This document shows positions 13,691 through 28,102 of a stretch of DNA of 64,000 bases, piece after piece (the stretch's first letter is position 1; every line of letters starts with the position of its first letter). Below the pieces are notes generated by a model. That model had not been told where the DNA came from and did not search any database. It saw only the letters and a program-made list of their open reading frames with translations. Source of the DNA: a virus; the IMG/VR virus record IMGVR_UViG_3300013093_000001, positions 49,906 through 113,905 of that record; one strand, 5' to 3'. The position numbers were made by a program, and so were the translations under genes.

Positions 13691-13696
13691 TCCAGC

Positions 13697-14378: not shown

Positions 14379-14458
14379 CTTTCCTCCTCCTTGTTCGGGC
14401 TATCTGACTGACAGCCGCCGCACTGGGTGGGATTTTGACATCCCACCCAGTCACCTTA
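14379..14458 (-). repeat. Double-hairpin unit 19
   Basis: HP1 arms ACTGGGTGGGA/TCCCACCCAGT, loop TGTCAAAA. HP2 is weak (GGCT/AGCC). GGAGGAGGAAAG. Confidence 0.85.
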
Positions 14459-14665
14459 CTACGAAAACTTCTTACCTGCCTGCAACCACATCATTGCTAT
14501 TACGTCGCATAATTCTGTACGACGCTCTGGCGTGACAGGCGGGTGCTTGGGATTCTCCCACCTCGCCATAATCTGCGCCGCGACCAGCAGCGTTAAGGGT
14601 GTGCGAACCGTTTCCCTGTCTGCTGCCGCCTGGTTCGCGAGCTCAGCCGCGTCTGTTTCGCTCAC
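14459..14665 (-). CDS. Small helical protein
   Basis: 68 residues, GTG start overlapping the upstream stop (GTGA). Helical, ending VIAMMWLQAGKKFS. No recognised family. Confidence 0.7.
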   Translation of the reverse strand: MSETDAAELANQAAADRETVRTPLTLLVAAQIMARWENPKHPPVTPERRTELCDVIAMMWLQAGKKFS

Positions 14666-14979
14666 GCCTCAACCCGCTTAATAACGGGGGCACCTGTTGC
14701 CGGATCACGGTGACCTGTCGTCCACCCACTAGGGACCGCCGCCTGGGCATCATCAATAATTCTCTCAATGACACCCCAGCGGATCGTGTCCGCGTCGATT
14801 TCTTCCGGGTCCACCGGCTCGCTAAAATAAAGCTCCCACGACGCTTCAAGCTCTCCGTCTGAGATTGCTAGTATCTCCTGCATCTCTGCGGCATACGCGC
14901 CACCATCGTTGGCGACCTCATCAACAGCCTGACAGAACAGCATCAAACCCCTGACGTAGTCTTCGTCCATGTCGCTCAT
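14662..14979 (-). CDS. Acidic hypothetical protein
   Basis: 105 residues from ATG 14979 behind GGAGGAGGAA. Strongly acidic, helical. The ATG at 14991 includes the SD and is rejected. Confidence 0.7.
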   Translation of the reverse strand: MSDMDEDYVRGLMLFCQAVDEVANDGGAYAAEMQEILAISDGELEASWELYFSEPVDPEEIDADTIRWGVIERIIDDAQAAVPSGWTTGHRDPATGAPVIKRVEA

Positions 14980-15054
14980 TTCCTCCTCCAATCTGGTCCG
15001 ACCCTTGTCGGACTCGTACCCCAGTCAGCTTCGACACTGACTGGGGCCTGCGTG
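14980..15054 (-). repeat. Double-hairpin unit 20
   Basis: HP1 arms CCCCAGTCAG/CTGACTGGGG, loop TGTCGAAG; HP2 GTCCGAC/GTCGGAC; GGAGGAGGAA. Confidence 0.9.
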
Positions 15055-15552
15055 TCAGTAAACGCGAAAACCGCCATGCTTCGCAGCGGCCTCTAAAAAC
15101 GGGACAAAATCGACTAGCTGTTCTTCAATAGACTGATCTGTGTTGTCGGCGTAAAAATTGCTCGCCAACTCCATTTCAAACAGCTTCAGCGCCGACTGGC
15201 ATTCAACCTTGGTCACCCACCAACCATCATTACCGATGAGCTTGTGGATCGGTATGCCTGGACGCTCATCCCGACTGTCCCGGTAGTAACGATCAACAGC
15301 TGCAACGAAGTCACGCGCTTCCTGCGTGACAGGCTCCCGCGACCAGCCGTCCTCCGACGTAACCCAGTGGTTGTCGTCTGGACGCTCCGGTACCTGCCGC
15401 CAGTTGTCTTCACCAACCGCCTCAAAGGCCATGTTGCAGCGAAGCAGTGCTAACCGCAGGTTACCTTGGTTCCACATGTTTCTGCGGCAGTAGAATTCGT
15501 CGCCGTGCAGCGTTTTACCGTCCTCATCACAAACATACATGTCGTATCCCAT
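15055..15552 (-). CDS. Hypothetical protein
   Basis: 165 residues from ATG 15552 (MGYDMYVCDEDGKTL). The opening with two Cys and aromatic residues resembles small phage proteins of the YDMYV type; unknown role. GAGGAGGAAGC lies 10 bases upstream. Confidence 0.75.
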   Translation of the reverse strand: MGYDMYVCDEDGKTLHGDEFYCRRNMWNQGNLRLALLRCNMAFEAVGEDNWRQVPERPDDNHWVTSEDGWSREPVTQEARDFVAAVDRYYRDSRDERPGIPIHKLIGNDGWWVTKVECQSALKLFEMELASNFYADNTDQSIEEQLVDFVPFLEAAAKHGGFRVY

Positions 15553-15636
15553 GTTTGCTGCTTCCTCCTCACTATGGTCCGACACCCTGCCGGACTCGTA
15601 CCCCGGCTAGCTATGACACTAGCCGGGGCCACCTAA
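15553..15636 (-). repeat. Double-hairpin unit 21
   Basis: HP1 arms CCCCGGCTAG/CTAGCCGGGG, loop TGTCATAG; HP2 GTCCGGC/GTCGGAC (one G-U); GAGGAGGAAG. Confidence 0.9.
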
Positions 15637-16272
15637 CTACCTTCTTTGCGCTGGGTCAACGTAGCGATCTAACAGTCGCCACCCGAAACCCTCACACGCG
15701 AAGGGACGGTCACCGATAATTACTAAATCGCCGACCGACAAACTGCGGTTCCCGTCGTCCCTGTATTTCCTACCCCACGCAAACGCAGGGTTGTCGCGGT
15801 TCAGTTCACCAAAAACTTTCCCCAGTAATCGAAACTCTGGTTCAAATTTCCACTGCAACCGCTCCGGTCCGCGCAACGTGGGAATGAAATCAGGCTCATC
15901 CCAACTGACCGCTAAGACGAGCTGGTCGCCTGGGCGGTGACCGTACATAAAACACTCGGTGTTTTGGTTCAAATAGACCCTCACTTGCCGGTGTCTCTGT
16001 ACGCAGTCGGGACAAAGATCGTTACCTACAAGATTTTCGGCTTGTAGCCAACCATCAGTTTGCAACCCTTCCTGTATGACCGCGTCCCGGATTTTCTCAT
16101 CTTCAGCGTAGCTATCTACACCCCACACGGCGTGACACTCATCGCATTCGATGAATGTCTCCCGTATTTTGTCTGTCAAGTCCAAGGGAAAATTCTCCCT
16201 CACACAGTCGGGTGGTAGATATGCTGTGCTCACGTCGGGCGGGTAACCCCAAAGCGCATCGCCTCGGGTCAT
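15637..16272 (-). CDS. Zinc-site hypothetical protein
   Basis: 211 residues from ATG 16272. CDECH and CPDC lie about 42 residues apart; the rest is mixed alpha/beta with SLSVGDLVIIGDRPFACEGFGWRL at the end. Its start overlaps the stop of a nine-residue leader ORF (16269-16298) that holds the good SD, so translation is probably coupled. Confidence 0.7.
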   Translation of the reverse strand: MTRGDALWGYPPDVSTAYLPPDCVRENFPLDLTDKIRETFIECDECHAVWGVDSYAEDEKIRDAVIQEGLQTDGWLQAENLVGNDLCPDCVQRHRQVRVYLNQNTECFMYGHRPGDQLVLAVSWDEPDFIPTLRGPERLQWKFEPEFRLLGKVFGELNRDNPAFAWGRKYRDDGNRSLSVGDLVIIGDRPFACEGFGWRLLDRYVDPAQRR

Positions 16273-16298
16273 TGCCGCCAACCCTCGTCAGCAGTCAT
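16269..16298 (-). CDS. Leader peptide MTADEGWRQ
   Basis: Nine codons and TGA, with AAAGGAGGATAGAAG just before its ATG. This is the SD position used by real genes in the block, and the main ORF start overlaps its stop as ATGA. Could be a translational coupling leader or a small control peptide. Confidence 0.5.
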   Translation of the reverse strand: MTADEGWRQ

Positions 16299-16378
16299 CT
16301 TCTATCCTCCTTTACCAAAGTCCGGCTCCTTGCCGGACTCGCACCCGGTACGGTTCTGACACCGTACCGGGCCTGTGT
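16299..16378 (-). repeat. Double-hairpin unit 22
   Basis: HP1 arms CCCGGTACGG/CCGTACCGGG, loop TGTCAGAA; HP2 GTCCGGC/GCCGGAC; AAAGGAGGA. Confidence 0.9.
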
Positions 16379-16789
16379 CTAGCCTTCTTTTAGCGCAGCA
16401 ACGCGCTCCGCTATGTCACACACCCACTCAACGCCAGGGATGTCGGTACCCAGCTCGTCTTCATCGACGTATGCCATGGAGTTGTCCGGGCTCCCGGTGT
16501 ACGCCACCACGGGCCGGTCCACGGACTTACGCCCGAAACCCGTCAGGCCAGCGCACCAAATCGGCTGGTACATTTTCTGCTGACCTATGCGCTCCTTGCC
16601 TGCTTCCAGGCAGGGCGTGCATATGTTGACGACAATGTCCTCGTGGTCAAACGAGTCCCAGAACGTCGCGCCGTAATGACCGTCGGTCCTGAAGACATTG
16701 GCTTCGTAAGGCTGGTTATCAGCCTCTATGAAGGCGTTTTGTAGTTTCTTACCGCACACGAAGCACGGTAAAAATGCCTCAACAGACAC
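16379..16789 (-). CDS. Zinc-site hypothetical protein
   Basis: 136 residues from GTG 16789 behind GAGGAGGAAGC. Opens with LPCFVCGKKL; CTPCLEAG follows about 45 residues later, as in zinc-ribbon proteins. The rest is unrecognised. Confidence 0.7.
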   Translation of the reverse strand: MSVEAFLPCFVCGKKLQNAFIEADNQPYEANVFRTDGHYGATFWDSFDHEDIVVNICTPCLEAGKERIGQQKMYQPIWCAGLTGFGRKSVDRPVVAYTGSPDNSMAYVDEDELGTDIPGVEWVCDIAERVAALKEG

Positions 16790-16862
16790 GCTTCCTCCTC
16801 TAACGGGTCGGCTGTCTGCCGACCTCGTACCCGGTATGGTGTTGAAACCATACCGGGCCTTT
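16790..16862 (-). repeat. Double-hairpin unit 23
   Basis: HP1 arms CCCGGTATGG/CCATACCGGG with a deviating loop TTTCAACA; HP2 GGTCGGC/GCCGACC; GAGGAGGAAG. Confidence 0.9.
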
Positions 16863-16979
16863 TTACCGCGACGTACAGGCAAGGGCACGACAATCAGCGC
16901 AGTAGGTTTTGCCGTAGGCGCTGATGTACGCAGTCAGCAACGTCAACGGATTGTCGCAATAAAAGCAGTGGATTAGCAC
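16863..16979 (-). CDS. Tiny zinc-finger protein
   Basis: 38 residues from GTG 16979, with AAGGAGGAG upstream inside the previous gene. CFYC and CADC are 22 residues apart, a minimal zinc ribbon. Overlaps the upstream gene by 7 bases. Confidence 0.65.
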   Translation of the reverse strand: MLIHCFYCDNPLTLLTAYISAYGKTYCADCRALACTSR

Positions 16980-17113
16980 TGGTGCTCCTCCTTATAACCA
17001 AAGTGCGACTCAGGCAGCGTCACGGTCAACTCACCGGCAAGAAAAGCTACGGCCTGTTCGCGACTGAGTCGCATCTTTTGGTACTCCCAAATGTCGCGCT
17101 CGTCGTACTCCAT
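16973..17113 (-). CDS. Small hypothetical protein
   Basis: 46 residues from ATG 17113 behind GGAGGAGGAA (MEYDERDIWEYQKMRLSREQ). Its end YKEEHQC carries the SD of the following gene, so the two are coupled. Confidence 0.7.
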   Translation of the reverse strand: MEYDERDIWEYQKMRLSREQAVAFLAGELTVTLPESHFGYKEEHQC

Positions 17114-17182
17114 TTCCTCCTCCAATCTGGTCAGCTTCTGCCAACCTCGTACCCCGGCCAGGTTCGACCCTGGCCGGGGCTT
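17114..17182 (-). repeat. Double-hairpin unit 24
   Basis: HP1 arms CCCCGGCCAGG/CCTGGCCGGGG, loop GTCGAA; HP2 GGTTGGC/GCTGACC with two adjacent G-U pairs; GGAGGAGGAA. Confidence 0.9.
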
Positions 17183-17542
17183 TCACGCCATCTGTTTACA
17201 CGTCCCATCTGCGCTGTGCTTATCCGGCGGCGTCCAGAAGTGTGTCAAACACCCATGTACCGACCTGAGATACCGTTCTACGTCGGGGTGATCTAATTCA
17301 TCTGCCGGGTTGTCGACACGAGAACAAATCTCATTCCACATGACGTCTTCCAACACCGACCCGGTGAATGCGTCTTGGCTCCTACGCCGCTGGTAATCAT
17401 GTACCAGCAACTCGTCGGACAACTCAATGACCTGATCATTGATGTCTTCTCTGACGCAGTCGCTCACCATACCCTGTAGCGGATTAGCACTGGACGGTAA
17501 ACCAAAACCCTCATAGGGTAAAGGCTGCCAATCTCCCTGCAT
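17183..17542 (-). CDS. Hypothetical protein
   Basis: 119 residues from ATG 17542 behind AGGAGGAGGAAAC. Helical middle, TCKQMA end. No recognised family. Confidence 0.7.
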   Translation of the reverse strand: MQGDWQPLPYEGFGLPSSANPLQGMVSDCVREDINDQVIELSDELLVHDYQRRRSQDAFTGSVLEDVMWNEICSRVDNPADELDHPDVERYLRSVHGCLTHFWTPPDKHSADGTCKQMA

Positions 17543-17618
17543 GTTTCCTCCTCCTAAACGGGCTGGCTTCTGCCAGCCTCGTGTCCGGTGTGGATTCGAC
17601 CCCACACCGGACCGTATG
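17543..17618 (-). repeat. Double-hairpin unit 25
   Basis: HP1 arms GTCCGGTGTGG/CCACACCGGAC, loop GGTCGAAT; HP2 GGCTGGC/GCCAGCC; AGGAGGAGGAAAC. Confidence 0.9.
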
Positions 17619-17867
17619 TCAATCTATGCCGCGCCACCACCGCATCGTAATGTCCAAGTTCCAGTCTCCAATCTCCCATTGCCACTGATCGCGTGGCAAT
17701 TCGGCCACGTTTATTTTCTCATCTTCAAACCTGTCGTCACACCACAGCTGGGCAGCGGCAATCGCCTTCTCCTCAGTTGAGTGAAGAGTGACGGAGATGT
17801 ACGGACCCTCTGCATAACACTCGGTGTCAACCAAGCAAATGGTTAGCACCCAGATATCCTGTTCCAT
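17619..17867 (-). CDS. Hypothetical protein
   Basis: 82 residues from ATG 17867 (MEQDIWVLTICLVDTECYAEGP). Alternating strands with one helix; C-terminus Trp-rich. No recognised family. Confidence 0.7.
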   Translation of the reverse strand: MEQDIWVLTICLVDTECYAEGPYISVTLHSTEEKAIAAAQLWCDDRFEDEKINVAELPRDQWQWEIGDWNLDITMRWWRGID

Positions 17868-17952
17868 TTTCCTCCTCCAATCTGGTCGGCTTTTTGCCAA
17901 CCTCGTACCCACGTCAGGTTCGACCCTGACGTGGGCGCTCAGCGCTAGCTGA
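17868..17952 (-). repeat. Double-hairpin unit 26
   Basis: HP1 arms CCCACGTCAGG/CCTGACGTGGG, loop GTCGAA; HP2 GGTTGGC/GCCGACC (one G-U); GGAGGAGGAAAA. Confidence 0.9.
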
Positions 17953-18393
17953 TCATTGGCGTGCAGCGTAGAACAATTCCACGCATGTGACTTCACGGAC
18001 CGGCTCTACCGTCAGGTAGGCCCAATCGACGAGGTACGCCAATGCGAAGCGCTCTGCGTCCCGCTGCGCCAATTCGCGCGTAGCGGCCTTGCCATACGCA
18101 ATCAGTTCTCCGTCATCAACGGTCCAAGCCTTTAGCCCTAAGTCCGGTTTGCCGGACAGATGACGAACGTACCAGGACCAGGGCCGGGGCCGCGGTCCAG
18201 GCGACAGCTGCTCAAAAAGCAGATCGGTTGCTGCCGCATCAGCGCTAGGCTGGTCATCGTCGCCTGGTGGGAACACTTGCGCGAGCAATTCAAAAGCAGT
18301 CATGTACTGATCGCCAACTTGACCCCCCGTAACCTCAGCGGTTTCGGGCGTCATGGTTGACCATTCCCACGGTACTTCTATCGTTATTTCCAT
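17953..18393 (-). CDS. Hypothetical protein
   Basis: 146 residues, SD AGAGGGAGAAAG with a longer spacer than usual. The C-terminal half (AWTVDDGELIAYGKAATRELAQRDAERFALAYL) looks like a small alpha/beta domain. No recognised family. Confidence 0.7.
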   Translation of the reverse strand: MEITIEVPWEWSTMTPETAEVTGGQVGDQYMTAFELLAQVFPPGDDDQPSADAAATDLLFEQLSPGPRPRPWSWYVRHLSGKPDLGLKAWTVDDGELIAYGKAATRELAQRDAERFALAYLVDWAYLTVEPVREVTCVELFYAARQ

Positions 18394-18476
18394 GGTTGGT
18401 ACTTTCTCCCTCTAACTGGCTCGGCTTTTTGCCAAGCTCGCGTCCTGGTGTGGTTCGACCCACACCAGGACTCCTT
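18394..18476 (-). repeat. Double-hairpin unit 27
   Basis: HP1 arms GTCCTGGTGTGG/CCACACCAGGAC (12 bp), loop GTCGAA; HP2 GCTTGGC/GCCGAGC (one G-U). Confidence 0.9.
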
Positions 18477-18725
18477 TCAGTCCAGGTAACTCGCCACCAC
18501 GTCTTCGAATTCAGCTTCGCAGCAGTCACTCACGTCTTCGTAGTACGTTTCGAAGTCAATGATCGGACTCCAGCTAATTCCTGGGCGTGGACGTTCATGC
18601 TCTAGCGCAATCACGTCACATTCGGTGTTGCACTCTCTGCAAACCTGCGTCAGCGGTGGATTTAAGCGCCTTCGCAGCGCTTCCGCTTCCTGCATACGCA
18701 TCAAAAAGTCTTTCATGCGTGACAT
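18477..18725 (-). CDS. Cys-rich hypothetical protein
   Basis: 82 residues from ATG 18725. CRECNTEC and DCCEAEFE suggest a zinc site. Met-rich N-terminal helix. Directly downstream of RNA candidate 18804-18990. Confidence 0.7.
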   Translation of the reverse strand: MSRMKDFLMRMQEAEALRRRLNPPLTQVCRECNTECDVIALEHERPRPGISWSPIIDFETYYEDVSDCCEAEFEDVVASYLD

Positions 18726-18800
18726 TTTTCCTCCTCCAAGGTGGGCATGGCTATTTGCCACGCCTCGTGCCCCGGCCAGGTTCGACCCTGGCCGGGGCTA
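18726..18800 (-). repeat. Double-hairpin unit 28a
   Basis: HP1 arms CCCCGGCCAGG/CCTGGCCGGGG, loop GTCGAA, placed directly after RNA candidate copy 3 instead of a stop codon; HP2 GGCGTGGC/GCCATGCC (one G-U); GGAGGAAAAA. Confidence 0.9.
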
Positions 18801-18803
18801 GGT

Positions 18804-18990
18804 GCGACGCAGGTACAGTACGCCAGAGGATAGCTGGCGGTCACTCGGGCCGCATCGCAACATGGCTATGCGCGACCTGAGTGGACTGTCCTTGCATTCC
18901 CGCTCCAAAGGGAGCAATCTTACCGCCGAGAAATTGGGCACTCGGCCTCTGCGGCAAGCAAAAACCTTCGGGGGGTGAGTTTAACGTCGC
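18804..18990 (-). ncRNA. Structured RNA candidate, family 1 copy 3
   Basis: Transcribed sense: arm GCGACG (18990-18985), GTTAAACTCACC, internal hairpins GCCGAG/CTCGGC, GCTCC/GGAGC and CGCCAG/CTGGCG, then GTACCTGC and arm CGTCGC (18809-18804). Compared with copies 1 and 2 the closing stem has changed on both sides (covariation). It sits as a non-coding cistron between units 28b and 28a. Confidence 0.7.
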
Positions 18991-19059
18991 TTCCTCTTTT
19001 GTGGTCGGCGTTCTTGCCGACCTCGTGTCCCAGGCAGGTTCGACCCTACCTGGGACTGC
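18991..19059 (-). repeat. Double-hairpin unit 28b
   Basis: HP1 arms GTCCCAGGTAGG/CCTGCCTGGGAC (12 bp, one G-U), loop GTCGAA; HP2 GGTCGGC/GCCGACC; then AGAGGAAGCGACG leading into the RNA candidate rather than a start codon. Confidence 0.9.
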
Positions 19060-19308
19060 TCAGGCGCTGATCTTGTCAAACGGGTGCTTAACCCAACACC
19101 GCTCAGCGTTCATCAACGACCGTTTGCCGTCATCATGGACGACATAGAACCACAATGTTCGCTTTCCCGGGTACATCGCTGACGGCTCCCAATGATGGGG
19201 TCGGCAACCGGACAGGTCGATGTAGCCTGCACGCAAATCGTAGTCCCAGACCCGCAACCCGTGCGTGATTGGGACTCCATCAAGGGTGCGCTCTGTCGTC
19301 GTTTCCAT
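19060..19308 (-). CDS. Hypothetical protein
   Basis: 82 residues, SD AGGAGGAAGAG. Beta-rich (GLRVWDYDLRAGYIDLSG, TLWFYVVHDDGKRSLMNAERC). No recognised family. Confidence 0.7.
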   Translation of the reverse strand: METTTERTLDGVPITHGLRVWDYDLRAGYIDLSGCRPHHWEPSAMYPGKRTLWFYVVHDDGKRSLMNAERCWVKHPFDKISA

Positions 19309-19407
19309 CTCTTCCTCCTTCTAGCTGGCTATTTGCCAACTCGTACCCCGGCCAGGTTCGACCCTGGCCGGGGCTATATTCAGTTGTTATTCAGTTGTGG
19401 GTTAGTG
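19309..19407 (-). repeat. Double-hairpin unit 29
   Basis: HP1 arms CCCCGGCCAGG/CCTGGCCGGGG, loop GTCGAA; HP2 GTTGGC/GCCAGC. Between the upstream stop and HP1 ATTCAGTTGT occurs twice (plus sense). Confidence 0.9.
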
Positions 19408-19788
19408 CTAGGCGACCTTGGTCTCCTTCGGCGCAGCCTTGACCTCGGGCATCCGGTCGTAGTGGTAGAAGTCGACGATCACGTCGTAGGCTCGCTGACG
19501 CTTCACGTCAACAGCCAACTCGACCGTCTTGCCACCCTTTCGGACAGTCGACTTCCAGCCATTCTTCGACGGGACAATGCGGAAGACAACCTGCTCGTCT
19601 CCCTCACCGATCTTGGCCGTCGCAGAAGTGGCCTTGGTCGCTTTCGTGACGCCGTCCAGCTGGAACCAGCGGAGCTGGACCCGACCGGATTTCGTCGGCT
19701 TCTTGCGACCTGCGCCACCGTTGCTGTTCCCAACCGTCTCCACCTCGGGGACGGTGTCGATCACAACGGTTTCCTTAGTTGCGGTCAT
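19408..19788 (-). CDS. Basic hypothetical protein
   Basis: 126 residues from ATG 19788 behind GGAGGAAATAAGAGAG. Low-complexity N-terminus, then VQLRWFQLDGV and VFRIVPSKNGWKSTVRKGGKTVEL; Lys-rich. Possibly nucleic-acid binding, from charge only. Confidence 0.7.
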   Translation of the reverse strand: MTATKETVVIDTVPEVETVGNSNGGAGRKKPTKSGRVQLRWFQLDGVTKATKATSATAKIGEGDEQVVFRIVPSKNGWKSTVRKGGKTVELAVDVKRQRAYDVIVDFYHYDRMPEVKAAPKETKVA

Positions 19789-19890
19789 CTCTCTTATTTC
19801 CTCCATTGTTGTGTGGCATTCGCCACGCATCCGGCCTTGTGCCGGATGTCTGTACCCGGTGCGGTTATGACGCCACACCGGGCCTTGTTG
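19789..19890 (-). repeat. Hairpin unit 30 with three stems
   Basis: HP1 arms CCCGGTGTGG/CCGCACCGGG (one G-U), loop CGTCATAA; HP2 ATCCGGC/GCCGGAT; a third stem GTGGC/GCCAC follows before the SD. Confidence 0.85.
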
Positions 19891-20346
19891 CTAAGCTTCA
19901 ACCGACTGCGACTTCAACGCAGCAATCTGCTGCTGCAACCGCTCGATCTCAGCCACCGGGTCACCCATCATCTGGGTAAACGCCTGCTCAACCGCAGTCA
20001 CAATCCGGTCGGCAGGGTTCAAGCGATAAATCAGGCCTTTTTCATAACCCGACTCACCCTTAATTCCGGCGTAAAGGTTGGTTCCTGCGCGGTTCCGCTT
20101 GACCACGGCCACTCGCCCGTCGTCCATGCGGTACTCACCCGGCTCTGTCACGCGCTCTGCGGCGGGTTTACCACCGGCAAAGGGCGCTTCTAGGGCCTTC
20201 GCAATCAAGGCGCTGGCCTGTTCAGCTGTCATTCCAACAGCTAAAAACTGGTCAATCGCCGACCGCAAGCCGTCTGGTACTTCTCGCTTGACCAGCAGGT
20301 CACCGAGAAAGCTCAGCTGCTTTTCAGTCGCCATTCTTATCGCCAT
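19891..20346 (-). CDS. Hypothetical protein with ATEKQLSFL N-terminus
   Basis: 151 residues from ATG 20346 behind GGAGGAGGAAAC. MATEKQLSFLGDLLVKREV is a helical opening common to many phage and actinobacterial proteins. A Gly/Pro linker and a C-terminal coiled coil (PVAEIERLQQQIAALKSQ) follow. Function unknown. The longer in-frame extension crosses unit 31a and RNA element A and is rejected. Confidence 0.75.
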   Translation of the reverse strand: MAIRMATEKQLSFLGDLLVKREVPDGLRSAIDQFLAVGMTAEQASALIAKALEAPFAGGKPAAERVTEPGEYRMDDGRVAVVKRNRAGTNLYAGIKGESGYEKGLIYRLNPADRIVTAVEQAFTQMMGDPVAEIERLQQQIAALKSQSVEA

Positions 20347-20424
20347 GTTTCCTCCTCCATGGGTCCGACCCTGTGCCAGACCTCGTGTCCGGTGCGGTTT
20401 TGACACCGCACCGGACTCCCTAGC
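20347..20424 (-). repeat. Double-hairpin unit 31a
   Basis: HP1 arms GTCCGGTGCGG/CCGCACCGGAC, loop TGTCAAAA; HP2 GGTCTGGC/GTCGGACC (two G-U). Follows RNA element A directly. Confidence 0.9.
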
Positions 20425-20426
20425 AA

Positions 20427-20742
20427 CCCAACATCGCTGTTGGGGGTGGGGCGGTAGGGGTTCCCTACCCACCCCAGTTTGGAGGTTAGAGGAAATCACT
20501 ATTCATTAGACCTGTCGGTGCCACATGCGACCAGCTTCGCGCTGGCCGGGTTTGCACCCTAGCGCCTTGTGTTCACTAGCGGTGCCTCTACGTGCGCGAC
20601 CGCTGCTTCACTTTTGCCACCATCGTCCAAGTGCGCGACGGCGGCCACAAAGCACGCAGGCGCAAGGCTGCTCAGCCAGGTTGCGTGGACACCACAGATA
20701 TAGGTGTCCCGTAAAACCCGACCGGCAACTTTGCGCCTAAAA
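20427..20742 (-). ncRNA. Large structured RNA candidate, family 2 copy A
   Basis: About 316 nt and similar along its length to 25446-25787. Transcribed sense, in order: AGGCGCAA paired with TTGCGCCT; hairpins GGACACC/GGTGTCC and GGCTG/CAGCC; GCGCACTTGG...AAAAGTGAAGC with a possible pseudoknot; GGGTGCAAACCC; GGCCAGC/GCTGGTC; GATTTCCTCTAACCTCCAAAC; a long G/C stem (GGGGTGGG.../...CCCACCCC-type); and CCCAACA-GCGA-TGTTGGG with a GNRA tetraloop. No plausible ORF. Stems differ from copy B but stay paired. Confidence 0.7.
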
Positions 20743-20814
20743 CAAGTATACCCAGGGGCCTGAGTGTTGCCTACCCCTAAGCACGACTAATTCTTTCTAA
20801 CCCAAACCTGCTGG

Positions 20815-20887
20815 CGGCTGCCGGAAGGCTTTACCTTCCCCAGCCAGCCTCGTACCCGGTGTGGCTTCGACACCATACCGGGCCTCC
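20815..20887 (-). repeat. Hairpin unit 31b
   Basis: HP1 CCCGGTATGG/CCACACCGGG with loop TGTCGAAG and one mismatch (the only unit whose exception favours the plus sense); HP2 is replaced by a longer stem GGCTGGC.../...GCCGCC. It leads into element A, not into a start codon. Confidence 0.8.
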
Positions 20888-20971
20888 TTACTTGTGCGTC
20901 CAGTCCCGGTAAAGCACCGCGAACAGGGTGCAAGCCATAACAATCATGGCCTCAACAGCGGGTGACATCAT
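20888..20971 (-). CDS. 27-residue membrane peptide
   Basis: MMSPAVEAMIVMACTLFAVLYRDWTHK, one hydrophobic segment. ATG at 20971 overlaps the stop of the upstream gene (ATGATGA), with AGCGGGAGAA as SD. Too short for automatic ORF calls but placed like a real coupled gene. Confidence 0.6.
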   Translation of the reverse strand: MMSPAVEAMIVMACTLFAVLYRDWTHK

Positions 20972-21108
20972 TTCTCCCGCTGGCTTTTCAGTCCCAAGCG
21001 TTGACGCACCCAGGCCAGACCTGGCGTTTCAGCCGGGGGCACATAATCCTGTGCGGGTTTAATCCCCTGCCAGACGCTCAACCCCATGTTGGGGTTCATG
21101 TATAGCAT
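20968..21108 (-). CDS. Small hypothetical protein
   Basis: 46 residues from ATG 21108 behind AAGGAGGATAG (MLYMNPNMGLSVWQG...). Coupled to the membrane peptide downstream. Confidence 0.7.
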   Translation of the reverse strand: MLYMNPNMGLSVWQGIKPAQDYVPPAETPGLAWVRQRLGLKSQREK

Positions 21109-21186
21109 TTCTATCCTCCTTCTAGGTCGGCCTCGTGCCAACCTCGTGTCCCGCGTGGGTTCGACCCCACGCGGGACCACCACCTA
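21109..21186 (-). repeat. Double-hairpin unit 32
   Basis: HP1 arms GTCCCGCGTGGG/CCCACGCGGGAC (12 bp), loop GTCGAA; HP2 GGTTGGC/GCCGACC (one G-U); AAGGAGGATAG. Confidence 0.9.
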
Positions 21187-21372
21187 CTAGGAATTCTCCC
21201 AATTCCGGTAGCTCTTGTCTCGGCGTAACGCTTTCGCGTTTCGCTTCTTGCGCTGGTCTTGGTGGATACCAGCAGCGCCGGATCGTCGCAATTCAAGACG
21301 GGCTCGCAGTTGCTCCTCGCAGGCGCTCAGGTACTTGTCATCCACCAGTTGCAGATGACGCTTCATTATCAT
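21187..21372 (-). CDS. Small basic helical protein
   Basis: 61 residues from ATG 21372 behind AGGAGGAAATA. Very basic C-terminus (RRSGAAGIHQDQRKKRNAKALRRDK split by helices); possible nucleic-acid binder, from charge only. Confidence 0.7.
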   Translation of the reverse strand: MIMKRHLQLVDDKYLSACEEQLRARLELRRSGAAGIHQDQRKKRNAKALRRDKSYRNWENS

Positions 21373-21460
21373 TATTTCCTCCTGTACCGGCTGGCTCTTT
21401 GCCAGCCTCGTACCCCGGCAGGTTCTGACACCCACCGGGGCCTGGGCCTTTATGGTCCTG
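21373..21460 (-). repeat. Double-hairpin unit 33
   Basis: HP1 arms CCCCGGTGGG/CCTGCCGGGG with two G-U pairs in the transcribed sense (A-C mismatches in the other), loop TGTCAGAA; HP2 GGCTGGC/GCCAGCC. Confidence 0.9.
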
Positions 21461-21643
21461 CTAGAGCAGCACCAAATCTTCAGGCCACGCCTCATCTTCA
21501 CCGCCTGTGTCGAACTGGCCTGGATCCCATTCCAGGACAATGCCAATTCCGTTGGGGCCGTCCACCACCTCAACAACAGTTCCAATCATGGTAGGTGCAC
21601 CGCAAGAGCGGACACGATCTCCCGGTTTGAACTTTTTACTCAT
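21461..21643 (-). CDS. KOW/SH3-like small protein
   Basis: 60 residues from ATG 21643. KFKPGDRVRS, MIGTVVEVVDGPNGIGIVLEWDPG reads as a small SH3/KOW-type barrel (PGDxV...GxVxxV). Often a nucleic-acid or protein contact module; role here unknown. Confidence 0.7.
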   Translation of the reverse strand: MSKKFKPGDRVRSCGAPTMIGTVVEVVDGPNGIGIVLEWDPGQFDTGGEDEAWPEDLVLL

Positions 21644-21718
21644 TCCTCCTCCACTCTGGTCGGCCTCGTACCGACCTCGTACCCGGTATGGCTTCGACAC
21701 CATACCGGGCCTCGTCAC
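21644..21718 (-). repeat. Double-hairpin unit 34
   Basis: HP1 arms CCCGGTATGG/CCATACCGGG, loop TGTCGAAG; HP2 GGTCGG/CCGACC; GGAGGAGGA. Confidence 0.9.
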
Positions 21719-21988
21719 TCAAGCAAAGTCTCGGTAGCGTTTTTCTGCTTCCACGACCGCTCGCGCGATCTTCGACGGTTCCAACCACTCCTGGTGACCG
21801 GACTTAGCTTCCGGCTGCTTCCAGTACCACGCCACGACCTCACTGTGCGTGTCTTCTGCTTTCCACCAGAACAAGCACGTTTCGTAGGTCAAGTCAGGTA
21901 ACTCGACCGTACTCACCAAGACCGAACCAACGCTCTCCAGCGTGACGACTTCTCGTTCGTGGTAACGGGCGTCTTCTTCGTAGTCCAT
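21719..21988 (-). CDS. Hypothetical protein
   Basis: 89 residues, SD AGGAGGAGAAAA. VVTLESVGSVLVSTVELPDLTYETCLFW gives strands, then an acidic helical end. No recognised family. Confidence 0.7.
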   Translation of the reverse strand: MDYEEDARYHEREVVTLESVGSVLVSTVELPDLTYETCLFWWKAEDTHSEVVAWYWKQPEAKSGHQEWLEPSKIARAVVEAEKRYRDFA

Positions 21989-22064
21989 TTTCTCCTCCTA
22001 ATCAGCTGACCGTTTGCCAGCTTTGCGCCCTGTGTGGTTTCGACACCACACAGGGCCATCTCAC
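21989..22064 (-). repeat. Double-hairpin unit 35
   Basis: HP1 arms CCCTGTGTGG/CCACACAGGG, loop TGTCGAAA; HP2 AGCTGGC/GTCAGCT (one G-U); AGGAGGAGAAAA. Confidence 0.9.
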
Positions 22065-22376
22065 TCAGTTGCGCCACCACGTTTCCCAGTCGTACATCTC
22101 ACTGTCGCTCAGGAACCCGTCGCCATCCGGGTCGGTACCAAACCGGGCGAACTCAATGCGCTTCGCCGCTAGGGCGAACTGCAAGTTCTTCGACTCTCCA
22201 GCCGGGACCAAAAACGTCACATCCCACACGGAGAAATCTGTACCGGAACCGGTGTCGTAGCCGTGGTGATCGGCAATGATCTGCTTCAGGAACACCCATT
22301 GGGGGTTTTCCCGTCCAGCGTCATCGCGCTCCGGGTAGGGCAGGTAAGCCTTGTACCGGTGCATTACTGTTGCCAT
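22065..22376 (-). CDS. Hypothetical protein
   Basis: 103 residues from ATG 22376 behind GGAGGAGGAAAAC. Contains DPDGDGFLSDSEMYDWETW, an EF-hand-like acidic loop (DPDGDGFLS) that could bind Ca2+. Otherwise unrecognised. Confidence 0.7.
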   Translation of the reverse strand: MATVMHRYKAYLPYPERDDAGRENPQWVFLKQIIADHHGYDTGSGTDFSVWDVTFLVPAGESKNLQFALAAKRIEFARFGTDPDGDGFLSDSEMYDWETWWRN

Positions 22377-22454
22377 GTTTTCCTCCTCCAACGTGGTCCG
22401 GCCTTGTGCCGGACCTGCGTGCCCTGGCGGGTTCTGACACCCACCAGGGCTTTT
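22377..22454 (-). repeat. Double-hairpin unit 36
   Basis: HP1 arms CCCTGGTGGG/CCCGCCAGGG (one G-U), loop TGTCAGAA; HP2 GGTCCGGC/GCCGGACC (8 bp). Confidence 0.9.
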
Positions 22455-22760
22455 CTAGCTGGTTGCCGCCTCAAACTCAGCGTTTAACTCAGCAACCTTC
22501 TGCTTGACCGTCCCATCCAGCCACGCTTGCGCCAGTTCATCAATTTTCGGTACCCGGTAGGGCCAAATCTCCCTGAACTCGCTCGCCAGCTTGAATTGCG
22601 CTGTCAAACACTCAGCCGTCATCTCCAACTTGCCGTCAAGTTCTTCTACTATAAACTTGACGAGCTGGGTTTCATTCTGACGGACGGCATCCAATTTCCG
22701 CCAAGTGTTGAAGACGCGCTCTCGCGCTTTTTCTAATTTGGTCGGTGGACCACCAATCAT
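22455..22760 (-). CDS. Helical hypothetical protein
   Basis: 101 residues, SD AGGAGGAAAA. Nearly all helix with heptad spacing (TKLEKARERVFNTWRKL; VAELNAEFEAA). No recognised family. Confidence 0.7.
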   Translation of the reverse strand: MIGGPPTKLEKARERVFNTWRKLDAVRQNETQLVKFIVEELDGKLEMTAECLTAQFKLASEFREIWPYRVPKIDELAQAWLDGTVKQKVAELNAEFEAATS

Positions 22761-22831
22761 TTTTCCTCCTCCTTATCTAGCCACTAGTGGCTTCGTACCG
22801 GTGCAGGGTTCGACCCCCACACCGGTTCCTT
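22761..22831 (-). repeat. Double-hairpin unit 37
   Basis: HP1 arms ACCGGTGTGGGG/CCCTGCACCGGT region with two adjacent G-U pairs, loop containing GGTCGAA; HP2 AGCCA/TGGCT; AGGAGGAAAA. Confidence 0.85.
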
Positions 22832-23101
22832 TTACTGCGAGAACTGCGCGTGGAGCTCTCGGGCGTACTCGGGTATAGCTGCTTTCCACCATGTCTCATA
22901 CCCAAGGTGTTGGGCAATTTGCTGCGCCAAGTGCAGCGCATCTTCCGGCGACAAGAACATGACCGCGTTGCTTCGGTCTGTTTTCGTTCCGGCCAGGTCA
23001 ATGACGACCTTCGTCCCGTCTTCCGTGCGGTGTACGTCTCGCCGTAGCGCGACGTAGTGCATGTAGACGGTGAAGGCGCTGCTTTCGTGGTCTTGTTCCA
23101 T
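22832..23101 (-). CDS. Hypothetical protein
   Basis: 89 residues from ATG 23101. FTVYMHYVALRRDVHR then VVIDLAGTKTDRSNAVMFLSPEDALHLAQQIAQHL: beta hairpin followed by a helix, as in small regulatory folds. No recognised family. Confidence 0.7.
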   Translation of the reverse strand: MEQDHESSAFTVYMHYVALRRDVHRTEDGTKVVIDLAGTKTDRSNAVMFLSPEDALHLAQQIAQHLGYETWWKAAIPEYARELHAQFSQ

Positions 23102-23178
23102 TTTTCCTCCTCCAACATGGGTTCGGCTTCTTGCCGGACCTCGCGTCCCGGTCAGGTTCGACGCTGACCGGGACTCCC
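23102..23178 (-). repeat. Double-hairpin unit 38
   Basis: HP1 arms GTCCCGGTCAG/CTGACCGGGAC, loop CGTCGAAC; HP2 GGTCCGGC/GCCGAACC with one mismatch; GGAGGAGGAAAAA. Confidence 0.9.
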
Positions 23179-23424
23179 TCACACGACCGTGAAATTCCCG
23201 GTCTTGGCTTTCACCTTCACGTTCGCGTACCAGCGCCGATCCCGGTAGGGGTCGGGGCCAACCACCACGTCGCTCGGTGTCAGCTCTGCAGCTTTCACAG
23301 TCCCACGGTTGCTGAACGCTGAGGTGTCGGTGAATGCCACCGGCTGCTCAGCCTCAACAGCGTCCTTCAACGCTTTCTTGGACGGGAAGTTACGTCCTCC
23401 TAGCGTGGCGTGGAAGTTGCTCAT
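23179..23424 (-). CDS. Hypothetical protein
   Basis: 81 residues from ATG 23424 (MSNFHATLGGRNFPSKKALKDAV). Ends in beta strands (RRWYANVKVKAKTGNFTVV). No recognised family. Confidence 0.7.
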   Translation of the reverse strand: MSNFHATLGGRNFPSKKALKDAVEAEQPVAFTDTSAFSNRGTVKAAELTPSDVVVGPDPYRDRRWYANVKVKAKTGNFTVV

Positions 23425-23509
23425 TATTTTTCCTCCTCCAACATGGGTCCGGCCTTGTGCCGGACCCTGCGTGCCCCCGCCAGGTTCGACCCTGACGGGG
23501 GCTTCTGTC
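23425..23509 (-). repeat. Double-hairpin unit 39
   Basis: HP1 arms GCCCCCGTCAGG/CCTGGCGGGGGC (12 bp, one G-U), loop GTCGAA; HP2 GGTCCGGC/GCCGGACC. Confidence 0.9.
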
Positions 23510-23854
23510 CTACTGGACGTATCCGTTGTCAACACACTCCTGGCAGGTAAAAAACCCTGTCTTTAGGTTGTAGAACCCATCCCAGCCGGTGTCCTTCGCA
23601 TTACAGGACCAGCAATCCGGGGCTGGCATGATTTCGGGCGCTTCGTCCTTGAATGCGTCCCACTCTTTGGGCGTCACCCCGCTGATGAGAAATTCTCTCT
23701 CATCAACACTCAGGTGTGGGAACGCGTCTTGCACGCACTCTCCCACGCCGCGCTCTCGCGCTTCCAGCCACGCTTCCATCGCGTGGGGTGCAACATCAAT
23801 GTCCATCTGGTTCACGTAACCAGTGATGATCGATGTCTTCTGGACTGTGACCAT
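23510..23854 (-). CDS. Zinc-site hypothetical protein
   Basis: 114 residues from ATG 23854. Helical N-terminal part (MEAWLEARERGVGECVQDAFPHLSVDERE), then CWSCNAKDTGWDGFYNLKTGFFTCQEC, a CxxC-x18-CxxC zinc ribbon. Function unknown. Confidence 0.75.
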   Translation of the reverse strand: MVTVQKTSIITGYVNQMDIDVAPHAMEAWLEARERGVGECVQDAFPHLSVDEREFLISGVTPKEWDAFKDEAPEIMPAPDCWSCNAKDTGWDGFYNLKTGFFTCQECVDNGYVQ

Positions 23855-23934
23855 TCTTTCCTCCTCCAACTTGGCTCGACCTCATGTCAAGCCTCGTACC
23901 CGGTGGTGGTTCGACCCACCACCGGGCCTTGTGG
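23855..23934 (-). repeat. Double-hairpin unit 40
   Basis: HP1 arms CCCGGTGGTGG/CCACCACCGGG, loop GTCGAA; HP2 GGCTTGAC/GTCGAGCC (one G-U), identical to HP2 of unit 42. Confidence 0.9.
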
Positions 23935-24153
23935 CTAGTGCACCAATTCGTTCGGCATCCAGCCTGGTTGACGGTCTGAGTAGTGTGACTCATCGTCAAC
24001 CGCAGTAATCGTCGCTAACTGCATTCCGTCACCTTCGCTTAGCTTGCATATCGAAGCATTCGCGATTCCCTGCTCTTGCATCGCCAGCAAGGTCTTCAGG
24101 TTCCGTGTGGTCAGTTCAACGCGAAGTTCGTTTCCAACTGCGAACACCTTCAT
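23935..24153 (-). CDS. Hypothetical protein
   Basis: 72 residues from ATG 24153. MKVFAVGNELRVELTTRNLKTLLAMQEQG: two strands and a helix, resembling a small swapped-hairpin fold. No recognised family. Confidence 0.7.
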   Translation of the reverse strand: MKVFAVGNELRVELTTRNLKTLLAMQEQGIANASICKLSEGDGMQLATITAVDDESHYSDRQPGWMPNELVH

Positions 24154-24235
24154 TTTTTCCTCCTCCAACTTGGCTTGGCCTCGTGCCAGCCTCGTACCCC
24201 TGCCAGGTTCGACCCTGACAGGGGCTCCTTCCGCG
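24154..24235 (-). repeat. Double-hairpin unit 41
   Basis: HP1 arms CCCCTGTCAGG/CCTGGCAGGGG (one G-U), loop GTCGAA; HP2 GGCTGGC/GCCAAGCC with a bulge. Confidence 0.9.
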
Positions 24236-24682
24236 TCAGCGGTAAAAACCATCACAATCGGTGTCATCTAACCCTAATACGTGGACGAATAGCTTCTCCC
24301 CACACATCAGGCATATCTGCTGGCTGTACTCTTCCAACAACTGATTTTCGACTGCCGAAGCCAGCTCTTCCCCAGACAGACCTTGTTCAGTAAAACTGCT
24401 GAACAACTCGACACAGCGGGGTGCTACCCTCACTGCGTCAATGTGGAAGTCTGCTATCCAGTCCCAGTTCAGTTGTTTATCGTCACCGTGTGCTTTACTA
24501 CTCGTTGACCCGGTGTGATACACATAATCCGACCAGCGGATGTATGTACCGGCCATCGGTGTACCAGAGAGTCTGTAGTGACGATCAACGTATGCCGGTT
24601 CGTGTGGCGGTTCTAATACCGTCTCAACGGTAATCAAAACCGACTCAACCGACAGGGCAGTTTGCAGCAACCGTGCGTCCAC
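24236..24682 (-). CDS. Hypothetical protein
   Basis: 148 residues from GTG 24682 with GGAGGAGGAAAC upstream. Contains CLMCGEKLFVHVL near the C-terminus and a helical centre. No recognised family. Confidence 0.7.
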   Translation of the reverse strand: MDARLLQTALSVESVLITVETVLEPPHEPAYVDRHYRLSGTPMAGTYIRWSDYVYHTGSTSSKAHGDDKQLNWDWIADFHIDAVRVAPRCVELFSSFTEQGLSGEELASAVENQLLEEYSQQICLMCGEKLFVHVLGLDDTDCDGFYR

Positions 24683-24765
24683 TGCTGTTTCCTCCTCCAA
24701 CTTGGCTCGACCTCATGTCAAGCCTCGTACCCGGTACAGTTTCGAGGCTGTACCGGGCCTGTGCG
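24683..24765 (-). repeat. Double-hairpin unit 42
   Basis: HP1 arms CCCGGTACAG/CTGTACCGGG with deviating loop CCTCGAAA; HP2 GGCTTGAC/GTCGAGCC. Confidence 0.9.
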
Positions 24766-24927
24766 CTACGCCAACCCGGCGCGGCGCAGTGCGTCCCGCA
24801 TCGCGGGGTTGCGGTAGTGCGTACCCCGCACCGGGGCGGGACCGCTCGCCTTCGCAGGCATGGCGGCCGGAGTGGCCTCTGCGGCCACAACCGCGACCAG
24901 CTTCCGGTTCACGTTGTATGCGTTCAC
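24766..24927 (-). CDS. Small Ala/Pro-rich basic protein
   Basis: 53 residues from GTG 24927. RKLVAVVAAEATPAAMPAKA then NPAMRDALRRAGLA. Basic, low complexity; no recognised family. Confidence 0.65.
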   Translation of the reverse strand: MNAYNVNRKLVAVVAAEATPAAMPAKASGPAPVRGTHYRNPAMRDALRRAGLA

Positions 24928-25007
24928 TTTTTTCCTCCTCCAACATGGGCCTGACCTTTTGCCAAGCCTCGTACCCCGGCAGGTTCTGACACCCACCGGG
25001 GCCTTCG
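24928..25007 (-). repeat. Double-hairpin unit 43
   Basis: HP1 arms CCCCGGTGGG/CCTGCCGGGG (two G-U), loop TGTCAGAA; HP2 GGCTTGGC/GTCAGGCC (two G-U). Confidence 0.9.
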
Positions 25008-25280
25008 TCACACGGCGACGATCTTCAATTCGCCTCGCGTGACCAATCGGTACATCGGGCGACACCCATCATCGGTCCGACACAGGGTATCAATGGCGCA
25101 ACGAATGTCATCGACAAGCGTCTCAACTGGGTCATCACCCCTGCGCCAGTTCGGGTAGCGGAACACGTTCTTCATGTCCGCTTCGAACGCAGCAATGTAA
25201 CCAGTGCGTCCAAGAATCTCGTCGGCGTTCCGGGCAAGTGCAACCCAGGCCGCTTCGTCGTAAATCTCCGACATCCTCAT
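25008..25280 (-). CDS. Hypothetical protein, first strong gene of the block
   Basis: 90 residues from ATG 25280 (MRMSEIYDEAAWVALARNADEIL); ATG 25274 and an upstream GTG (after GCGGAGGC) are alternatives. The usual GGAGGAAA is missing; only TTGGAG lies upstream. Helical N-terminal half. No recognised family. Confidence 0.6.
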   Translation of the reverse strand: MRMSEIYDEAAWVALARNADEILGRTGYIAAFEADMKNVFRYPNWRRGDDPVETLVDDIRCAIDTLCRTDDGCRPMYRLVTRGELKIVAV

Positions 25281-25440
25281 GTGACAGCTCCAATCTGTCT
25301 CTAACTCGGTGGCCTCAACTGAGGTCACCGCCTCCGCTTCGTCAGCGGCAGGATGGTTGGTTGTGCAGCGCGGGGTAAATCTCCCAGCCGCGCTGCACAA
25401 CCTCGTGGCCGGTGCGGTTTTGACACCGCACCGGCCTCCA
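25281..25440 (-). repeat. Enlarged hairpin unit 44
   Basis: HP1 arms GGCCGGTGCGG/CCGCACCGGCC, loop TGTCAAAA, directly after RNA element B; a long HP2 (GTTGTGCAGCGCGG paired with CCGCGCTGCACAAC); and a third stem GGTGACCTCA/TGAGGCCACC before the weak start of 25008-25280. Confidence 0.8.
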
Positions 25441-25445
25441 GTACA

Positions 25446-25787
25446 CCCAACATCGCTGTTGGGGCGGGGGTGGGCGGGGGCTCCCCACCCACCCCCTGTT
25501 TGGAGGTTAGAGGAAATCACTATGTATCAAACCTGTCGGTGCTACATGCGACCGGCTCTTGCCAGTCGGGTTTGCGCCCTAGCTCGTCGTGTCCACTAGC
25601 AAGGCCTCTAACCGCGCACCTGCTGCTTCACTTTTGCCGACATCGCCCAAGTGCGCGACGGCGGCCACAACGAACAACGCAAAGAAGCCGGTCAAGGTAG
25701 CACCTACAGGGATGTACCCCTGTAGGTTGCGGACCCCTTAGATAAGGGTGTCCCTAAAACCCCGACCGGCAACTTTGCGCCTAAAAC
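25446..25787 (-). ncRNA. Large structured RNA candidate, family 2 copy B
   Basis: About 342 nt, homologous to 20427-20742. Transcribed sense: GCGCAAAG with CTTTGCGT; GCCGGTC with GACCGGC; GGACACCCTT/AAGGGGTCC; CTACAGGG/CCCTGTAG (replacing GGCTG/CAGCC of copy A); conserved GCGCACTTGGGCGATG and GGCAAAAGTGAAGCAGC; GACTGGC/GCCGGTC; GATTTCCTCTAACCTCC; a G/C-rich stem; and CCCAACA-GCGA-TGTTGGG. HP1 of unit 44 follows. Confidence 0.7.
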
Positions 25788-25834
25788 AAACGTACCAACG
25801 GGCAGGAGCGACCACAACCCCCAATCTTTTCTGG

Positions 25835-26047
25835 TCACTCATTCTTTGGCGCGGGGTCGGCGCTGGCAGCGGCTGGTTGAGCGGCAATTCTTTCCGCTAC
25901 CCAGGATGCTGGTTTCTTTCTCCACCAAGATTGAGTGACCGGAGCCGGTACCGGCTTCGGAGTGGCTGAGCGGAGCGACACTCGGAGCAAAAATCGGAGT
26001 GACATTCGGAGTAACTCTGATTGCGTGAGTTGATAGCGGCTCTGCAC
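25835..26047 (-). CDS. Doubtful ORF over a 12-base repeat array
   Basis: 70 codons (MQSRYQLTQSELLRMSLRF...). No hairpin unit or SD precedes it. Another frame of the same DNA reads as VTPN-VTPI-FAPS-VAPL, four-residue repeats like those of phage structural proteins. The true coding frame, if any, is unclear. Confidence 0.3.
   Translation of the reverse strand: MQSRYQLTQSELLRMSLRFLLRVSLRSATPKPVPAPVTQSWWRKKPASWVAERIAAQPAAASADPAPKNE
25958..26018. repeat. 12-base tandem repeats
   Basis: Five copies of CGGAGYNNNNNT at 25958, 25971, 25983, 25995 and 26007, mostly 12 bases apart. They lie ahead of the minus block in the divergent region. Either iteron-like binding sites or a 4-residue protein repeat. 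Confidence 0.7.
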
Positions 26048-26295
26048 TAGGACTGCGCCCTAGCTTACTCGGCCCTGGCAGCCTCCGCGCTGTCCTCCGC
26101 GCTGTCCTCCAGCAGCCGCTCCCCAGCCACTCTGGGCAGTTGTGGCAGAAAAGATTGGGTGGCGTGAAGAGTAAACCCGTTGCACAGAACTATTGCCTGG
26201 TGTCAAGCTAGGTATTACGCTTGCCTTATGGCAAGCGTTACACGACACACCACCACGGTGGACAACGCAGCGCCAGGGACGGAGGTGACAACAAA
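26048..26295. other. Divergent intergenic region
   Basis: 248 bases between the minus block and the plus genes. Contains CTCCGCGCTGTC twice in tandem (about 26091-26115) and a perfect hairpin CGCTTGCC-TTAT-GGCAAGCG at 26218-26237. TTGACA occurs on the minus strand near 26208 but no good -10 follows at normal spacing, so promoters are expected here but none can be fixed. Confidence 0.5.
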
Positions 26296-28017: not shown

Positions 28018-28025
28018 CGGCCACA

Positions 28026-28060
28026 CCGTACCCCACCCGCGACACGCGGGTGGGGTACGG
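28026..28060 (+). terminator. Strong 15-bp hairpin after 27655-28017
   Basis: CCGTACCCCACCCGC paired perfectly with GCGGGTGGGGTACGG, loop GACAC, 8 bases after the stop. No T-run. Confidence 0.6.
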
Positions 28061-28102
28061 TTGCGCGTGGGCGGCTGGTCCCCCCGACAAGGTTACCCGC
28101 CA

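What the first reader, a model, noticed from the sequence alone, without database searches (positions are those of the whole stretch)
20427..25787. Two copies of a 320-340 nt RNA candidate with compensating stems
Elements at 20427-20742 and 25446-25787 align over their length. They share GCGCACTTGG...AAAAGTGAAGC, GATTTCCTCTAACCTCC and a CCCAACA-GCGA-TGTTGGG hairpin whose loop is GNRA only in the minus sense. Corresponding hairpins differ in sequence but remain paired (CTACAGGG/CCCTGTAG against GGCTG/CAGCC). Each is followed by HP1 of a punctuation unit. This is large enough for a ribozyme, scaffold or sponge RNA. It is not recognisable by eye as tmRNA or RNase P RNA.
Basis: partly seen in the sequence, partly recalled or inferred. 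Interest (0 to 1): 0.87.

Follow-up and report, generated by a model that had tools for sequence, protein, structure and literature searches.

The report
Duplicated structured leader RNA in phage
A phage DNA record carries two diverged copies of a roughly 310-340-letter folded RNA, each with promoter-like DNA just before it and each placed ahead of a stretch of about 35 small genes; it matches no known RNA class and probably helps control how those genes are switched on.

Summary
A (20427-20742) and B (25446-25787) are 79% identical non-coding paralogues on the minus strand. That strand folds far better than chance (single-sequence z -6.8 and -9.3; paired alignment z -8.2 against -3.0 for the plus strand). 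In four helices of the core, 10 of 37 base pairs vary, 5 of them on both sides, and none breaks. No Rfam family matches and no homologue was found, so the RNA is known from one phage only. The copies are best read as a duplicated cassette of promoter-like DNA, structured RNA and an identical HP1 hairpin. B sits exactly at the head of a 19-kb leftward array (35 HP1 hairpins, stereotyped UUGGAGGAGGAAA ribosome-binding sites); A sits 5 kb in. An invariant single-stranded block (AUUUCCUCUAACCUCCAAAC) is a split complement of that site. In silico it buries the site of the gene after A (most occluded of 37) or pairs with the RNA's own UAGAGG loop. I favour a cis-acting leader that gates translation (about 0.35). 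A trans-acting RNA and a put-like antiterminator remain open.

The parts
20427..20737 (-). RNA copy A, predicted +1 (G of GGCGC) at 20737, to the GNRA hairpin at 20427
   Evidence: 79% identity to copy B; fold z -6.75; non-coding
25446..25781 (-). RNA copy B, predicted +1 at 25781, to the GNRA hairpin at 25446
   Evidence: fold z -9.32
20745..20773 (-). promoter-like site before copy A: TAGGCA-17-TATACT
   Evidence: 9 of 12 consensus matches, 0.1 expected per shuffled region; inferred, not shown to be active
25789..25817 (-). same position before copy B: TTGTGG-17-TACGTT (only 6 of 12)
   Evidence: homologous to A's site: 25 of 38 upstream nt identical; poor sigma-70 consensus
20656..20737 (-). 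domain 1 of copy A: long imperfect helix P1 that starts at the predicted +1
   Evidence: MFE -51.1 kcal/mol
25676..25781 (-). domain 1 of copy B: same invariant 5' strand, changed 3' strand still pairs; extra hairpin ACCTACAGGG/CCCTGTAGGT
   Evidence: MFE -69.4 kcal/mol
20562..20655 (-). domain 2 of copy A: closing helix around two hairpins (loop CGCACUUGG; loop with UAGAGG)
   Evidence: both copies fold alone to near-identical MFE shapes; 4 double changes, 0 broken pairs
25582..25675 (-). domain 2 of copy B
20528..20548 (-). hairpin GGCCAGC/GCUGGUC of copy A
   Evidence: 1 double and 2 single changes against B, all paired
25549..25568 (-). hairpin GACUGGC/GCCGGUC of copy B
20478..20498 (-). 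invariant anti-RBS block GAUUUCCUCUAACCUCCAAAC, copy A
   Evidence: pairs with the RBS of gene 19891-20346; 0 of 150 shuffled blocks do as well
25498..25518 (-). the same invariant block, copy B
   Evidence: pairs with its own GGUUAGAGG loop, probability about 0.93
20585..20590 (-). UAGAGG loop of copy A, alternative partner of the block (6 bp)
25605..25610 (-). UAGAGG loop of copy B (9 bp with the block)
20448..20477 (-). G+C-rich terminal hairpin, copy A (approximate limits)
25466..25496 (-). G+C-rich terminal hairpin, copy B
20387..20416 (-). HP1 hairpin after copy A (CCGGTGCGG-TGTCAAAA-CCGCACCGG)
   Evidence: identical to the HP1 after B over 26 nt
25407..25436 (-). HP1 hairpin after copy B, the first of the array
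19891..20346 (-). gene directly downstream of copy A (151 aa, weak PHROG 636 match, function unknown); its RBS GGAGGAGGAAA is the predicted cis target

Best explanation
SHOWN: two paralogous structured non-coding RNAs on the minus strand of a tailed phage, each part of a duplicated unit of similar upstream DNA, RNA and an identical HP1 hairpin. B is at the head of a leftward array of small genes; A lies 5 kb inside it. INFERRED: transcription starts at GGCGC, 7 nt after a -10 site, and runs through the RNA into the array, so the RNA is a long 5' leader. Domains 1 and 2 fold first. The invariant single-stranded block AUUUCCUC-UAAC-CUCCAAAC then chooses between two partners. One is the leader's own UAGAGG loop, which leaves the downstream ribosome-binding site free. 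The other is the UUGGAGGAGGAAA-type ribosome-binding site of the following gene, which closes it off. Whatever binds the conserved core (an unidentified protein, metabolite, or the ribosome or polymerase itself) would set the balance, so the leader gates expression of the array from each entry point.
For: Minus-strand structure and compensation: fold z -6.75 and -9.32, alifold z -8.2, 8 double changes against 2.2 expected, 37 pairs with 10 variable and 0 broken. Non-coding. Promoter-like site abutting copy A and similar upstream DNA in B, 25/38 identical. All 35 detected HP1 hairpins lie on the minus strand between 6758 and 25436, none elsewhere in the record, and B precedes the first. In the leader-plus-gene transcript of A the block pairs with the gene's RBS: site 0.14 unpaired, lowest of 37 array genes (values 0.14-0.98); 0 of 150 shuffled blocks match it. 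In B the block pairs 9 bp with GGUUAGAGG, probability about 0.93.
Against: The cis switch is clear only in A; the gene after B has a weak site (UUGGAG) and the block barely reaches it (sum of pairing 1.6, site 0.53 unpaired). The block is pyrimidine-rich and every array gene has a GGAGG-type site, so complementarity to the array is only modestly above shuffles (P 0.023) and the block was chosen after inspection. The two partners of the block are invariant in their core, so covariation cannot test them. B's promoter hexamers are poor (6/12). There is no expression evidence and there are only two sequences.
Confidence: 0.35

Rival explanations
1. A free-standing trans-acting non-coding RNA with its own promoter, present in two copies for dosage or specialisation. 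It would bind proteins, or use the block to bind the stereotyped ribosome-binding sites of many array mRNAs.
For: Both copies have similar DNA at the promoter position. Copy A occupies a gene's place between HP1-type hairpins. The block complements array sites better than the genome's plus-strand gene starts (mean -15.4 against -8.9 kcal/mol) and better than the 16S 3' end does (-12.2). Highly expressed non-coding RNAs are known in other actinophages (PMC10986025).
Against: No intrinsic terminator with a U-run ends either RNA, and both are followed at once by HP1 and array genes. Complementarity against shuffles is only P 0.023.
Confidence: 0.3
2. A cis-acting transcription element: a leader RNA that modifies RNA polymerase so that it reads through the roughly 35 stable HP1 hairpins of the array, in the manner of HK022 put.
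For: Each copy follows a promoter-like site and precedes a run of stable hairpins (mean HP1 energy -25 kcal/mol). HK022 also has two similar put RNAs near early promoters that act over 10 kb or more (PMC9378689).
Against: The RNA is about 4-5 times longer than put (about 70 nt) and differently built. HP1s lack U-runs, so they need not be terminators. Both copies are on one strand rather than in divergent operons. Nothing tested here addresses polymerase binding.
Confidence: 0.17
3. A DNA-level element (origin, packaging or recombination site) whose hairpins matter as DNA, with the RNA-like pattern incidental.
For: B adjoins a roughly 500-bp divergent non-coding region with inverted and direct repeats.
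Against: The minus strand folds and conserves pairs much better than the plus strand; wobble G-U pairs replace Watson-Crick pairs on the minus strand, which would be A-C mismatches on the other.
Confidence: 0.05

Closest known systems
HK022 putL/putR RNA (PMC9378689)
   Same: two similar structured RNAs in the leaders of phage operons, near promoters, followed by long gene runs
   Different: put is about 70 nt with two stem-loops; this is 310-340 nt with at least five hairpins, and both copies are in one operon direction. Function here untested.
SAS/ESAS start-associated sequences of Cluster K mycobacteriophages (PMC3203893)
   Same: the surrounding array repeats a structured element plus a stereotyped sequence before many gene starts
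   Different: those are short (13 bp, with 17-bp inverted repeats) and concern the HP1/HP2 punctuation, not the 310-340-nt RNA
Highly transcribed non-coding RNAs of actinophages (WC1, D29, Kampy; described in PMC10986025)
   Same: non-coding RNAs of actinophages in gene-free stretches, unknown function
   Different: no match of the core model in D29, Giles or TM4; those RNAs lie at genome ends or mid-genome
GOLLD, ROOL and other large ornate RNAs (PMC12286853)
   Same: large structured bacterial or phage RNAs of unclear function
   Different: no Rfam match to them even at E <= 5; the present RNA is smaller
Translational riboswitches and ribosomal-protein leaders (own knowledge)
   Same: a leader segment that pairs alternatively with an internal strand or with the ribosome-binding site
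   Different: no ligand known, no member family, duplicated within one operon

Membership tests
any Rfam 15 family | covariance-model score at or above the gathering threshold | tested here: not met
   none in the whole window or the rest of the record; permissive search of each copy gave nothing for A and only weak sub-threshold hits for B
tmRNA or tRNA | ARAGORN-recognisable tRNA-like domain | tested here: not met
   no gene in window or record
HK022 put-type antiterminator RNA | about 70-nt, two-stem-loop RNA | tested here: not met
   310-340 nt with several domains
HK022 put-type antiterminator RNA | location in the leader just downstream of an early promoter | tested here: inconclusive
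   promoter-like site before A, poor one before B; timing unknown
HK022 put-type antiterminator RNA | suppression of termination through RNA polymerase | not testable with these tools
   needs in vitro transcription
translational leader with RBS sequestration | alternative pairings that hide or expose the downstream RBS | tested here: inconclusive
   predicted for A, weak for B; internal alternative strong in B, weak in A
translational leader with RBS sequestration | ligand- or factor-dependent switching | not testable with these tools
   needs biochemical or genetic assay
protein-coding sequence (rival to an RNA) | conserved open frame with third-position bias | tested here: not met

The most novel reading that the evidence does not exclude
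A phage RNA that acts as one master switch for a whole gene array in trans: its invariant bulged anti-RBS block (UUUCCUC-UAAC-CUCCAA) pairs with the shared UUGGAGGAGGAAA ribosome-binding sites of some 35 genes, and is released or silenced by pairing with its own RBS-like loop (UAGAGG).
Probability: 0.12. Interest if true: 0.8.

Novelty: new variant of a known kind. Interest (0 to 1): 0.5.

Why it matters
The RNA belongs to no described family, is large and is maintained in two compensated copies, so it probably does something the phage needs. If the leader reading is right, it gives a directly testable case of one RNA architecture gating a long operon whose genes nearly all carry the same structured start signal; comparable start-associated repeats in Cluster K mycobacteriophages are still unexplained. 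Its value is limited until homologues or expression data exist.

Tried and rejected
Homologues: exact patterns from conserved blocks in IMG/VR and two in GTDB genomes; blastn against phages and plasmids; the core model against the fetched matches, seven related viral contigs, five mycobacteriophages and one Gordonia phage, then Giles, TM4 and D29. All further matches were chance or the seed itself.

Neighbouring array proteins as bait found no related contigs; the portal protein found relatives, but their contigs gave no match to the element, and most probably do not reach the array region.

A plus-strand mini-gene (GGAGGTTAGAGGAAATCACTATG in B) was rejected: A has ATT in place of ATG and a stop two codons on.

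A pseudoknot CACUU:AAGUG between the 10-nt loop and the AAAAGUGAAGC linker is possible, but both strands are invariant and the linker looks too short to span a 10-bp stem; not claimed. Known RNA classes covered by Rfam (including group I introns, RNase P, small ribozymes, GOLLD and ROOL) were rejected on the Rfam result. My first count of helix 4 was one column out of register; one search is the corrected count.
Full report
SETTING. The window is bases 49,906-113,905 of a 113,905-base IMG/VR virus record. Terminase, portal, head-maturation protease and major head proteins lie at 44-59 kb; the portal is 47% identical to that of Omegavirus (Cluster J) mycobacteriophages. From about 25.4 kb leftward to about 6.8 kb runs an array of small minus-strand genes. 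In most, a hairpin here called HP1 lies a few nt after a stop codon and is followed by ACGAGG, a second hairpin, a GGAGGAGGAAA-type ribosome-binding site and the next start. Thirty-five HP1 hairpins were found on the minus strand between 6758 and 25436 and none elsewhere in the record.

THE OBSERVATION. A (20427-20742) and B (25446-25787) are paralogues: 257 of 326 aligned positions identical, one 24-nt insertion in B and several single-base indels. They are the only two copies in the record. Similarity continues upstream (25 of 38 nt, no shuffle of 20,000 reaching it) and downstream through an HP1 that is identical in both over 26 nt, to ACGAGG.

NOT CODING. No frame is open across either copy, indels break the frame, and 22 substitutions in the first 115 nt of the core spread 8/7/7 over codon positions.

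STRAND AND STRUCTURE. The minus strand folds at z -6.75 (A) and -9.32 (B); the plus strand at -2.8 and -6.3. On the paired alignment the consensus energy is z -8.2 on the minus and -3.0 on the plus strand (column shuffles, dinucleotides not preserved). Using pairs predicted from A alone, B has 8 double changes that keep the pair against 2.2 expected and 17 broken against 27 (P 0.0006 and 0.0004); on the plus strand 3 against 1.5. The reverse direction is weaker on the minus strand (5 against 2.5, P 0.08) and the plus strand also scores there (6 against 1.8, P 0.004); stems shared between strands would do this, so this particular test does not by itself settle the strand. In the four best helices of the core, 37 pairs include 5 with double changes and 5 with single changes, none broken; partner-slid controls pair in 24-51% of cells. 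The single changes there are G-U wobbles in the minus sense. Only two sequences exist, so this is strong for a structure but not an R-scape-grade proof of each helix.

ANATOMY (minus sense). Domain 1: an invariant 5' strand GGCGCAAAGUUGCCGGUCGGG folds back on a changed 3' strand in both copies; B adds the hairpin ACCUACAGGG/CCCUGUAGGU. Domain 2 (94 nt): a closing helix around two hairpins, with near-identical MFE shape in both copies when folded alone; in the longer single-sequence fold of B this domain rearranges. Then a hairpin GGCCAGC/GCUGGUC, the invariant block GAUUUCCUCUAACCUCCAAAC, a G+C-rich hairpin, a GNRA-capped hairpin, and HP1. In A, TAGGCA-17-TATACT ends 7 nt before the first base of domain 1 (9 of 12 matches); B has TTGTGG-17-TACGTT at the same place (6 of 12). 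The sequences TTGTTTTAGG and AAAGAATNAGT occur only at these two places in the record.

THE CONSERVED BLOCK. The array consensus UUGGAGGAGGAAA has the complement UUUCCUCCUCCAA; the block is UUUCCUC-UAAC-CUCCAA, the same sequence split by four bases. Mean duplex energy with 36 array start regions is -15.4 kcal/mol against -11.4 for dinucleotide shuffles (P 0.023), -8.9 against 18 assumed plus-strand gene starts, and -12.2 for an actinobacterial-type 16S 3' end (typed from own knowledge) with the array. When A is folded with its downstream gene, the block closes on that gene's site: total pairing 13.0 against 4.2 for shuffled blocks, none of 150 as high, and the site is the most occluded of 37 array genes (0.14 unpaired). 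In RNA B alone the block pairs 9 bp with its own GGUUAGAGG (probability about 0.93); in A the same loop offers 6 bp. This is a two-state arrangement on paper. It is weaker for B, whose next gene has only UUGGAG.

RELATIVES. Nothing in Rfam. Nothing by DNA or core model in phages, plasmids, IMG/VR patterns, GTDB patterns, or the related and comparison phage records searched. The RNA is at present known from one record.

VERDICT. A real structured phage RNA in two copies (my confidence about 0.9), best read as a duplicated leader cassette of the leftward array. Cis gating of translation by the anti-RBS block is the most concrete mechanism (0.35), with a trans-acting RNA (0.30) and a put-like antitermination leader (0.17) as live rivals. 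Membership in the put family was tested on size and shape and not met; works-like-put remains possible.

Noticed in passing
window 6758-25436, minus strand: 35 HP1 hairpins (12-bp stem, loop with GUC-R-N-A) lie mostly 2-19 nt after stop codons and are followed by ACGAGG, a second hairpin and a stereotyped GGAGGAGGAAA site; none elsewhere in the record. U-G and G-U pairs in some stems (e.g. 21412-21441) fit the minus-sense RNA.
   Followed up: partly
window 20855-20886: a degenerate HP1 (A-C mismatch in the stem) followed by hairpin-forming sequence but no gene, directly upstream of RNA copy A: a gene-less unit
   Followed up: no
window 25360-25401: a 14-bp perfect hairpin (GTTGTGCAGCGCGG/CCGCGCTGCACAAC) replaces the usual second hairpin after the HP1 of copy B
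   Followed up: no
window 25800-26290: roughly 500-bp non-coding divergent region with long-range inverted repeats (25813-25833/26146-26166), a tandem CCTCCGCGCTGT pair and CGGAGTGACATT-like repeats; possible origin or operator
   Followed up: partly
window 7974-8831, minus strand: a Ku-like DNA end-binding protein (PF02735, PHROG 4873) in the array
   Followed up: no
window 28025-28061: perfect 16-bp hairpin ACCGTACCCCACCCGC-GTGTC-GCGGGTGGGGTACGGT, purpose unknown
   Followed up: no
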